From: an uncultured Eubacteriales bacterium
Lineage (GTDB): Bacteria > Bacillota > Clostridia > Christensenellales > Aristaeellaceae
Reading direction: 5' to 3'
NCBI GenBank assembly: GCA_902778995.1
Contig: CACYZW010000042.1
Coordinates: 1-47,424, forward strand
DNA: 47,424 bases
A program made the translations under genes and the position numbers. Below, in pieces: positions 37,930-44,609 of this stretch. The notes below the pieces were generated by a model, which saw only the letters and a program-made list of their open reading frames with translations, was not told the origin of the DNA and made no database searches. Numbering within the stretch: position 1 is the first letter of the stretch; each line of letters begins with the position of its first letter.

Positions 37930-40389
37930 ATGTATTATTCTGCGATTGGTCTGCTTGCGGTTCTGATACTGCTGATTGAAAACCAGGATGTCCTCCTCAA
38001 TCTCGGGGGCGCCTTTGAAAAACCTGCCTGGAGGGCGTACAGGCGCTTCCTGAGTGCGGTTTTTGCGTATTACGTCACGGATATCCTGTGGGGCTTCCTT
38101 GAAAGCCGAAAGCTGGGCGCACTGCTTTTTGCCGATACGACCGTCTATTTCATCGCGATGGCGGTGGGCGTGTTGTTCTGGGCGGAATACACCGTCGCAT
38201 ATCTGGATGAGGAAAACGGGTTCGGTCGATTCCTGGTATACGCCGGGCGCTTCATCGCCGGATCGATCACACTGCTCGCCGTGATCAATATCTTTGCGCC
38301 CGTGCTTTTCACCGTGGACGGCGCGTGCGTCTACCACCCCCTTCCCTTTCGCTATGTGATCCTCGCCGTCCAGATTCTCCTGCTCTTCATGATCTCGGCC
38401 TACGCCGTCGCGTCCTACGTCCACAATCCATCTGAAAAAAAGCTGAAATACCGGACGTTGGCGCTGTTCGGGTTTATCATGGGAACCTTTCTGTTTATTC
38501 AGCTCTGGTTCCCCTATCTGCCGCTCCACACCATCGCCTACATGCTGGGCACGAGTCTGCTGCACACGGTCGTGATCAACGACGAAAAGGACGAATACCG
38601 GCGCGCATCGGAGGAAATCGGCAGGGTAAGGGCGCTGAACGACACCATCAACTCGATGCTGGACAACATGCCCGGCATGACCTTCGCCAAGGACGCGACG
38701 ACCGGCGTCTATCTGGCCTGCAACCAGACCTTCGCGGAATTCGCGAAAAAGGGCAGTCCGTCGGATGTGATCGGGCTGACCGACGCCGATATCTTCGGCC
38801 CGGCGGAGGCGGCGCATTTCATCGAGGACAACCGCACGGCGCTCTCCATGGACGAGCCCTACATCTTCTTTGAGGACGCGCAGGACGAAGACGGCAATCC
38901 CCGGCAGCTGCAGACCACCATAATCAAATACACCGATTACACCGGTCGGCAGTGCCTGCTGGGCATGTGCCAGGATGTGACGGACATGGTGCGCATCCGG
39001 CGCGAAAAGGCGACCACCAGGGAGGCCTATGAAAAGGCGCGCAGCGGCGGCATCATGTATTCCCTCATCGCCCAGTCGATGACCCGGGGCTTCCGGGATC
39101 TGTATTATGTCAACGTGGATTCCGAGGAATTCATCGAATACCGCCTGGACGAAGACGGCGAATCGCTCGTTGAAGTGCGGCGCGGCTGGCATTTCTTTGA
39201 GGAGTGCCAGATCGAGGCCGAGGCGTTCGTCTATGCCGAGGACCGCGCCGCCTTTGTCCGGGCTCTGGATCGAAAGACGCTGATGGCGGCCCTGGATCGA
39301 AACAAGACCTTCGTCATGACCTATCGCCTGATCTCGGACGAGGGGCCGGTCTTTGTCAGCATGCGCGTCTCCCGCATGGAGGACGACGAGCGTTACATCG
39401 TACTGGGCGTGACCGACGTGGACGAGCAGGTGCGGCAGCGCCGCGCGGCCGAGCGCGTAAGGGAGGAGCAAATCGCCTACAGGCGCATCAGCGCGCTCAT
39501 CGGCGACTTCCTCTGCATCTACGTCGTGGACCCCAAGGGCGACCGCTATCGGGAATTCAGCGCGTCCGCTGGCTATGAAGCCTATGGTATTCCCAAGGCG
39601 GGCATGGACTTCTTCAACGTCACCCGGGACGCCGCCCAAAGGATCAACCACCCCGAGGATCTGAACCGCTTCCTTTCGACGTTTACCAGGGAAAACGTCA
39701 TGGCGGAAATCGAGCGCCACGGCATCTTCACGCTGAGCTATCGCATAATGATGGAGGGCAAGCCCCTCTATGTGCAGCTCAAGGCGGCGATGGTGGCGGA
39801 AAAGGAGGGCTCGCGCGTGATCGTCGGCATCAACGACATCGACGCGCAGGTGCGCCAGGAGGAATCCTATGTCAGGCACCTCGCCCAGGCGCAGATGGAG
39901 GCCAACGTCGACCCGCTGACGGGCGTCAAAAACAGGCACGCCTATCTGGTGGCCGAGGAGCGGCTGAACCTGCAAATCGCCGAAGCGCGCGCGCCGGAGT
40001 TCGCCATCGCGATACTGGATGTCAACGACCTCAAGAAGGTCAACGACACCGAGGGACACAAGGCCGGCGACCAGTACATTAAGAACGCCTGCAGGATCAT
40101 ATGCGAAATCTTCAGGCACAGCCCCGTGTTCCGCCTCGGCGGGGACGAGTTTGCGGTCATCGCCCAGGGGGGCGACTATGAGCATATGGAAGCACTGGTC
40201 GAACGGGTGAACGATCACAACGCCGAAGCCATGCAGACCGGGGGCATCGTCATCGCCTGCGGCGCGGCAAGGTATGAAAGCGATGCCAGCGTGGCCCAGG
40301 TGTTTGAGCGCGCGGATCAGAATATGTATGAAAATAAAATCGATCTGAAGGCCCGGAGGGAAGCTGCGGGCGGGAGGGAAGAGCATTGA
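37930..40389 (+). CDS. Membrane PAS-PAS-PAS-GGDEF diguanylate cyclase
   Basis: This 819-residue protein should make cyclic di-GMP. Six or seven membrane helices (1-215) lead to a coiled-coil, then three PAS-like domains (about 240-355, 385-505 and 515-625) and a GGDEF domain (645-805). The active site RLGGDEFAVI is near 735-744, and the substrate motif is DVNDLKKVNDTEGHKAGD. The usual inhibitory RxxD site before GGDEF reads FRHS, so feedback control by product is probably absent. The first two PAS domains closely match those of the next protein. Its stop overlaps the next TTG start as TTGA. GAGG is about 10 bases before the ATG. Confidence 0.9.
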   Translation: MYYSAIGLLAVLILLIENQDVLLNLGGAFEKPAWRAYRRFLSAVFAYYVTDILWGFLESRKLGALLFADTTVYFIAMAVGVLFWAEYTVAYLDEENGFGRFLVYAGRFIAGSITLLAVINIFAPVLFTVDGACVYHPLPFRYVILAVQILLLFMISAYAVASYVHNPSEKKLKYRTLALFGFIMGTFLFIQLWFPYLPLHTIAYMLGTSLLHTVVINDEKDEYRRASEEIGRVRALNDTINSMLDNMPGMTFAKDATTGVYLACNQTFAEFAKKGSPSDVIGLTDADIFGPAEAAHFIEDNRTALSMDEPYIFFEDAQDEDGNPRQLQTTIIKYTDYTGRQCLLGMCQDVTDMVRIRREKATTREAYEKARSGGIMYSLIAQSMTRGFRDLYYVNVDSEEFIEYRLDEDGESLVEVRRGWHFFEECQIEAEAFVYAEDRAAFVRALDRKTLMAALDRNKTFVMTYRLISDEGPVFVSMRVSRMEDDERYIVLGVTDVDEQVRQRRAAERVREEQIAYRRISALIGDFLCIYVVDPKGDRYREFSASAGYEAYGIPKAGMDFFNVTRDAAQRINHPEDLNRFLSTFTRENVMAEIERHGIFTLSYRIMMEGKPLYVQLKAAMVAEKEGSRVIVGINDIDAQVRQEESYVRHLAQAQMEANVDPLTGVKNRHAYLVAEERLNLQIAEARAPEFAIAILDVNDLKKVNDTEGHKAGDQYIKNACRIICEIFRHSPVFRLGGDEFAVIAQGGDYEHMEALVERVNDHNAEAMQTGGIVIACGAARYESDASVAQVFERADQNMYENKIDLKARREAAGGREEH

Positions 40390-44609: not shown

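What the first reader, a model, noticed from the sequence alone, without database searches (positions are those of the whole stretch)
40386..44609. Amino-acid permease fused to a two-receiver hybrid histidine kinase
One continuous 1407-codon frame joins a complete-looking APC-type permease (about 12 helices) to PAS-PAS-HisKA-HATPase-REC-REC. Transporter-kinase fusions are known (CbrA-type, with a sodium/solute symporter), but an APC permease in this position is unusual to my knowledge. The permease part keeps the GTSIGWGSF glycine motif, so it could still bind an amino acid. An extra outside loop between two added helices (residues 480-595) could couple transport to the kinase.
Basis: partly seen in the sequence, partly recalled or inferred. 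Interest (0 to 1): 0.78.

Follow-up and report, generated by a model that had tools for sequence, protein, structure and literature searches.

The report
Amino-acid-permease sensor fused to histidine kinase
A bacterium, apparently from the rumen or gut, carries a protein in which an amino-acid-permease body has become the sensing end of a signalling kinase; relatives show the same sensing body plugged into several signalling outputs, often those that make or break the messenger cyclic di-GMP.

Summary
The fusion is real. Window 40386/40392-44609 (+) is one open frame (1405 aa from the ATG): an APC permease body, two added helices, PAS_4, a second PAS-like part, HisKA, HATPase_c and two receivers. 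It is one member of a recurrent module: 19 other genome records carry the same order, and the same permease body is fused elsewhere to GGDEF, GGDEF-EAL, GGDEF-REC-GGDEF-EAL or other kinases. Sensor rows are marked by the added hairpin (66 of 67) and by Glu at TM6 position 238 (70 of 70; Asp in 12 of 12 permease-only rows of the thinned set). The ligand pocket is unusually conserved. Neighbours point to cyclic di-GMP: a GGDEF or EAL gene adjoins 20 of 21 orthologs with flanks; in a related kinase group an HPt gene separates a GGDEF/EAL gene from the permease-kinase in 9 of 9 genomes fetched. Ten literature searches showed no description. Best reading: a permease-derived sensor feeding cyclic di-GMP control.

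The parts
37930..40389 (+). Upstream partner gene: membrane part (7-helix type by my reading), PAS_4, further PAS-like part, GGDEF with RLGGDEF motif (probable diguanylate cyclase)
   Evidence: Pfam GGDEF 82.3 bits and PAS_4 42.8 bits; its stop overlaps the TTG start of the next gene
40386..44609 (+). Whole fused gene, TTG start; ATG start at 40392 gives 1405 aa
40467..41813 (+). APC permease body, about residues 26-474 (12 canonical helices by fold)
   Evidence: Pfam AA_permease_2 and AA_permease; profile of 24 relatives matches GkApcT 5oqt, E 1.7e-30
40497..40523 (+). TM1 break GTSIGWGSF, residues 36-44; G40, W41 and G42 the same in 70 of 70 sensor rows
41082..41105 (+). TM6 break PWAFIGFE, residues 231-238; Glu238 in 70 of 70 sensor rows, Asp in 12 of 12 permease-only rows of the thinned set
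41232..41309 (+). Lengthened outside loop 4 (residues 281-306): 26-30 residues in 70 of 70 sensor rows and 26 in both sister permeases, 15-21 in 10 outgroup permeases
41847..41903 (+). Added helix TM13 (about 486-504)
41904..42050 (+). Outside loop between the added helices (about 505-553), length varies in the family
42051..42107 (+). Added helix TM14 (about 554-572), followed by a charged helical-looking linker to the PAS
   Evidence: linker by inspection of the sequence
42216..42548 (+). PAS_4 domain
   Evidence: Pfam 41.5 bits, cut-off 23.1
42558..43031 (+). Second PAS-like region (bounds approximate); no Pfam match at E<=1
   Evidence: likeness to PAS-like parts of relatives only
43056..43256 (+). 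HisKA with SHEIRTP phospho-acceptor box (43083-43103)
43395..43742 (+). HATPase_c; N, G1 and G2 boxes present (box names recalled)
43800..44159 (+). Receiver 1 (bounds approximate), MDWSMP aspartate box
44223..44573 (+). Receiver 2 (residues 1278-1394), MDVRMP aspartate box

Best explanation
The gene encodes a permease-derived sensory hybrid kinase. Proposed steps: a small amine or amino-acid-type solute binds in the central APC pocket (inferred from conserved backbone-binding breaks); the resulting motion of the LeuT-type core moves the added TM13-TM14 hairpin and its helical linker (inferred); this changes the PAS-HisKA dimer, so the kinase phosphorylates itself and its receivers (motifs shown, activity not shown); the phosphoryl group goes by an HPt protein to cyclic-di-GMP enzymes, and the co-encoded GGDEF protein acts in the same circuit (shown as conserved gene order in relatives; inferred for the window, which has no HPt gene found beside it). 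The permease body is a swappable input module that arose from a transporter, with the hairpin and an Asp-to-Glu change in TM6.
For: Same body on many outputs; the output label needs 11 changes on the 82-row tree against 34.0 for shuffled labels. Hairpin in 66 of 67 testable sensor rows (the short L097 lacks it), 0 of 12 permease-only rows; 3 rows cut. Glu238 in 70 of 70 sensor rows against Asp in 12 of 12 others; seven pocket positions average 0.91 conservation against 0.66 for membrane positions, reached by 0.00015 of 20,000 draws. Kinase boxes present. GGDEF or EAL gene adjacent in 20 of 21 orthologs with flanking sequence. HPt between a GGDEF/EAL gene and the permease-kinase in 9 of 9 genomes fetched of a related kinase group, and between a permease-GGDEF-REC-GGDEF-EAL-PAS gene and a permease-kinase in the window's own genome. 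Six of 23 orthologs have an upstream partner with tandem SBP_bac_3 parts, Pfam-confirmed in 5 of 5 tested.
Against: The window has no HPt found in it, and its GGDEF neighbour shows no receiver, so the last step is by analogy. CbrA, the nearest studied case, showed no significant effect of its ligand on its activities (abstract). Other permease-kinases lack a GGDEF/EAL neighbour: L020, L103, L136 and the f40-family genes of L134 and L135, which stand beside a CheB-type gene. One permease-only gene thinned out of the 82 rows has Gly, not Asp, at position 238. Tree is the quick one; the careful run did not finish.
Confidence: 0.6

Rival explanations
1. True transceptor: the permease still carries its solute in, and the kinase reads transport flux or conformation, as CbrA both carries histidine and is a kinase.
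For: Pocket and gate residues kept; CbrA precedent of transport plus kinase in one chain (abstract; passages).
Against: The TM6 acid is Glu in 70 of 70 sensor rows and Asp in 12 of 12 permease-only rows of the thinned set; GkApcT Asp237-to-Ala lost transport (passages of PMC5803215), but I saw no test of Glu there. No Lys at the GkApcT Lys191 position and no Glu at Glu115 in the window, though the 8 permease-only rows compared lack them too.
Confidence: 0.25
2. The permease body is only a membrane anchor or dimer scaffold; the signal comes from PAS domains or from the outside loop.
For: PAS parts are present; the same kinase core occurs with other inputs (7-helix part in L042; an extracytoplasmic-sensor-like part in L041 by my reading).
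Against: Pocket positions are more conserved than the rest of the membrane part; the loop varies in length; several fusions show no PAS.
Confidence: 0.12
3. Assembly or annotation artefact joining two genes.
For: The window comes from a 239-contig assembly, 83% complete.
Against: The same order recurs in 19 other records, and the permease part recurs with other outputs.
Confidence: 0.01

Closest known systems
CbrA / CrbS (MxtR): SLC5 (SSS) - STAC - PAS - histidine kinase
   Same: LeuT-fold solute carrier with extra helices at the N-terminus of a PAS-bearing histidine kinase; CrbS is also a hybrid kinase (abstract openings, passages, abstract).
   Different: Different carrier family (APC, not SSS): no SSF match in Pfam. 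A two-helix hairpin where CbrA has STAC. The same permease body is also fused to GGDEF/EAL outputs. Hosts here are mostly labelled Clostridia; CbrA and CrbS were studied in Pseudomonas and Vibrio.
KsAmt5, ammonium transporter fused to a histidine kinase
   Same: Transporter-fold sensor on a kinase; a review reports that ammonium binding is suggested to trigger signalling (passages).
   Different: Another transporter fold (Amt, recalled); no ammonium transporter domain listed here.
LysP with CadC
   Same: An amino-acid permease acting in signalling (opening of the abstract of PMC12764776 in the listing).
   Different: Two separate proteins, the permease interacting with a regulator; not a fusion. 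That LysP is an APC-family member is recalled.
GkApcT (5oqt, 6f34), proton-coupled amino acid transporter of the CAT type
   Same: Best solved-structure match of the family profile; TM1 and TM6 breaks, gate aromatic and TM7 Tyr line up.
   Different: No signalling part; Thr43 is Trp41, Asp237 is Glu238, Lys191 and Glu115 not kept.

Membership tests
APC (AA_permease) family | Pfam AA_permease_2 above its curated cut-off | tested here: met
   75.8 bits, cut-off 27
APC (AA_permease) family | Glycine break in TM1 and GF-acid break in TM6 | tested here: met
   G40 and G42 in 70 of 70 sensor rows, acid at 238 is Glu rather than Asp; G236 in 79 of 79 rows then grouped as sensors, two of them misgrouped
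APC (AA_permease) family | Transport of amino acids or amines | not testable with these tools
   needs an uptake assay
Hybrid histidine kinase | HisKA, HATPase_c and receiver with key boxes | tested here: met
Hybrid histidine kinase | Autophosphorylation and phosphotransfer | not testable with these tools
   needs a kinase assay
SLC5/STAC sensor kinases (CbrA type) | SSS (SSF) carrier domain | tested here: not met
   Pfam lists AA_permease families only, no SSF at E<=0.001
SLC5/STAC sensor kinases (CbrA type) | STAC linker domain | tested here: inconclusive
   no STAC match, but I did not check that a STAC model is in the library
Amt-kinase (KsAmt5 type) | Ammonium transporter domain | tested here: not met
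   no such match at E<=0.001

The most novel reading that the evidence does not exclude
A previously unnamed sensory module: an APC transporter turned receptor by a TM6 Asp-to-Glu change and a TM13-TM14 hairpin, used as a plug-in input on kinases, diguanylate cyclases and phosphodiesterases of rumen and gut Clostridia, wired by co-encoded HPt proteins into cyclic di-GMP control.
Probability: 0.5. Interest if true: 0.76.

Novelty: new variant of a known kind. Interest (0 to 1): 0.63.

Why it matters
Transceptors are described as rare (passages of the CbrA preprint, and of the S-component paper). This family offers a set in which one carrier fold can be compared as transporter (12 helices, mostly Asp) and as putative sensor (14 helices, Glu), with outputs that can be read (cyclic di-GMP, phosphotransfer). 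It makes the question 'what turns a transporter into a receptor' testable by a small number of domain swaps and point changes, and suggests how rumen Clostridia may tie nutrient sensing to cyclic di-GMP.

Tried and rejected
Sequence search of the PDB with the 590-aa part alone found nothing at E<=0.001; a profile was needed. The idea that the lengthened outside loop 4 marks sensors was dropped: both sister 12-helix permeases, L144 and L152, have it. In one search two cut permease-only ORFs (L117_3023 and L124_3) were counted with the sensors by mistake; one search showed it and regrouped. That check also showed one permease-only gene (row L117_3023, and by position the same gene as the one permease-only row with Gly) with Gly at position 238; it was thinned out. 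Taurine as ligand was considered because permease-only relatives sit beside a sulfoacetaldehyde acetyltransferase (above its model's cut-off), class III aminotransferases (no model naming taurine), alanine dehydrogenase and an aldehyde dehydrogenase (top model just below cut-off); kept only as a lead, since those permeases are about 28-31% identical to the window and the outgroup differs at positions 38, 238, 242 and 336. Sutterella-labelled MAGs: 2 of 61 genomes searched match; transfer and contamination cannot be told apart. No PilZ match in the own genome.

Full report
What is there. The frame is open from 40386 (TTG) or 40392 (ATG) to the TGA at 44607-44609, with no internal stop. From the ATG it is 1405 aa. 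Pfam places AA_permease_2 at 30-447, HisKA at 889-955, HATPase_c at 1002-1117 and two receiver stretches, all above cut-off; PAS_4 lies at about 609-719. Kinase and receiver boxes are present. The upstream gene 37930-40389 is a membrane-PAS-GGDEF protein whose stop overlaps the TTG start, so the two are probably translated together (inference).

Not a single fusion. The one genome-contig scan kept the best 80 of 131 confirmed loci; most titles are MAGs labelled Clostridia or families of them, many naming ruminant hosts. In the 126 loci examined, 119 ORFs matched the permease part (cut, overlapping and fragment ORFs included). Domains there were called with single-sequence queries cut from the window and two loci, so weak domains can be missed. 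Uncut architectures: full window order, 18 (17 with a full-length permease match, and L020 with only its end in frame), besides L009 at a contig start and L016 with a split permease match; permease-hairpin-PAS-PAS-PAS-GGDEF, 13 (L031 split between frames); permease-hairpin-GGDEF, 10 (L101 split); GGDEF-GGDEF-EAL, 2; GGDEF-EAL, 1, with 1 more cut; kinase without PAS, several. GGDEF-REC-GGDEF, 9, all cut by locus ends; one search shows two of these genes continuing to EAL (L138, L140). In 20 uncut ORFs only the permease query matched; these include fragments, the output-less 14-helix L004 and the kinase L114. Pfam on ten representatives found the permease in 10 of 10 above cut-off and the outputs named, with these exceptions: no HisKA for L114 or L116, HATPase_c of L114 below cut-off (24.7, cut-off 26.4), and only one of the three PAS parts of L025. 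The own genome holds four copies: the window; a permease-GGDEF-REC-GGDEF-EAL-PAS protein and a permease-kinase-REC protein close together on contig 46; and a 14-helix form without output on contig 3.

Spread. In the window's family 27 of 150 genomes match at E<=1e-30, some by permease-only frames alone (for example G001 and G100). Across the phylum 9 of 398 match at E<=1e-40; by frame length and architecture four of these, G000, G395, G178 and G510, carry the sensor type. In the family of a Sutterella-labelled genome 2 of 61 match.

Tree and marks. The 82-row tree (of 137 rows, thinned at 80% identity; quick method, since the careful run did not finish) separates 70 sensor rows from two sister permeases and ten outgroup permeases on 95* branches. 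I labelled L114 as kinase by hand. Outputs change at least 11 times, against 34.0 for shuffled labels; starred branches alone force 3 changes for kinase and 3 for GGDEF. An earlier 79-row tree gave 8 changes against 30.2. L121, L115 and L152 are long rows of unsure place. Position 238 is Glu in 70 of 70 sensor rows and Asp in 12 of 12 others; one permease-only gene thinned out before has Gly there. The hairpin, by a hydropathy threshold of mine, is in 36 of 36 GGDEF-type, 24 of 24 kinase-type (L115 shows three peaks), 3 of 3 output-less and 3 of 3 undetermined sensor rows, not in the short sensor-clade row L097, and in 0 of 12 permease-only rows; 3 rows were cut. The lengthened outside loop 4 is shared with the two sister permeases, so it is probably older.

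Pocket. GkApcT residues named in paper passages (PMC5803215) were mapped by alignment: Ile40, Gly44, Phe231, Ala232, Ile234 and Tyr268 fall on S38, G42, W232, A233, I235 and Y269; Thr43 on W41; Asp237 on E238; Glu115 on T114; Lys191 on T187. The aligner put Ala119 on N122, which by eye looks shifted, so I make no claim from it. Seven ligand or gate positions average 0.91 conservation against 0.66 for membrane positions, reached by 0.00015 of 20,000 random draws. The draws ignore relatedness and helix, and several of these positions are also invariant in the permease-only rows, so this is suggestive of a kept pocket, not proof of a sensing role.

Neighbours. Of 23 orthologs with the window kinase order in L005-L084 (L018, L019 and L021 cut at the end), 18 have a GGDEF gene directly upstream: 11 with the 7-helix part, 6 with tandem SBP_bac_3, 1 cut. 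L024 and L012 have GGDEF and EAL genes downstream; L020 has none; L009 and L021 lack flanking sequence. The own genome has 45 GGDEF matches, about 1% of genes by my estimate, so chance adjacency this often is unlikely. In a related kinase group without PAS, nine genomes were fetched (L140, L143, L153-L159; two further cut matches, G036 and G146 contig 21, were not examined for neighbours). An HPt gene precedes the permease-kinase in 9 of 9; Pfam confirmed Hpt in 8 of 8 tested of these and in L138, while L159 rests on phmmer 3.9e-50. Before the HPt stands a GGDEF-EAL or EAL frame in 9 of 9; a receiver was found on it in L140, L143, L154 and L155, is read by eye in L159 (as is its GGDEF-EAL part), and cannot be judged in L153 and L156-L158, which are cut. 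The own genome has three Hpt matches in all, one between its two contig-46 permease sensors. Its contig 8 keeps a like HPt and REC-GGDEF-EAL pair (receiver by my reading) with a different hybrid kinase; no permease-kinase is seen there. Against a general rule: L103 and L136 have no GGDEF/EAL neighbour within the limits used, nor do the permease-kinases of L134 and L135, which follow a CheB-type gene. No HPt was found in the window by the same phmmer search.

What is inferred. Ligand class, coupling through the hairpin, kinase activity and phosphate flow are inferences. The SBP_bac_3 partners and the permease family point to amino-acid-type ligands; that SBP_bac_3 often binds amino acids is recalled. 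Taurine-gene neighbours of permease-only relatives are a weak lead.

Literature. Ten searches of the held library listed no paper that describes an APC permease fused to a kinase or GGDEF protein; four of them matched more papers than were listed, and subscription journals are mostly not held, so this is not proof of absence. For CbrA I saw the 2020 abstract and outline, passages of the 2026 preprint and of the SSS review; for KsAmt5 passages of a review; for GkApcT passages; for LysP only the opening of an abstract in a listing. In the c-di-GMP sensing review a term search gave no 'permease' and one 'transporter', in its references.

Verdict. Real, recurrent, not described in what I could search, and most likely a permease-derived sensor for cyclic di-GMP control; a new variant of the transporter-kinase kind rather than a wholly new kind.

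Noticed in passing
L139:7962-9677, L141:7294-9006, L142:6841-8595, L160:1600-3309: A 570-585 aa permease without output domain in the own genome and three same-genus genomes, sister to a kinase-bearing clade; hairpin and Glu238 checked in three of the four. It may be a transporter, or pair with a kinase-bearing sensor.
   Followed up: partly
L134:6507-12519 and L135:396-6589: Two tandem non-hybrid permease-kinases directly after a CheB-methylesterase gene in two genomes of another family; a link to chemotaxis-type output is possible.
   Followed up: partly
L127:4786-11706, L128:6029-14752, L129:879-9195: Tandem permease-only relatives beside sulfoacetaldehyde acetyltransferase, class III aminotransferases, alanine dehydrogenase or an aldehyde dehydrogenase; possible taurine carriers.
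   Followed up: partly
L165:11650-13736: In the window's own genome an HPt and REC-GGDEF-EAL pair like that of the related kinase group, but with another hybrid kinase nearby in place of the permease-kinase.
   Followed up: partly
L162:873-13337, L163:1216-4710, L145:1483-4521: A MAG labelled Sutterella has four matches to the module on three contigs; 2 of 61 genomes searched in its family match.
   Followed up: partly
L042:3-8430: Permease-kinase-REC, then an SBP-SBP-PAS-GGDEF gene, then a 7-helix form of the window's kinase core: the same inputs and outputs in another pairing.
   Followed up: no
window 35786-37231 (-), 34034-35578 (-), 45454-46362 (-), 46367-47314 (-): Neighbours: TrpB-like PLP enzyme, arabinofuranosidase ArfA, ArsP_1-type permease, DUF362 protein; no evident link to the sensor. 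Window 1-34000 was not studied.
   Followed up: no
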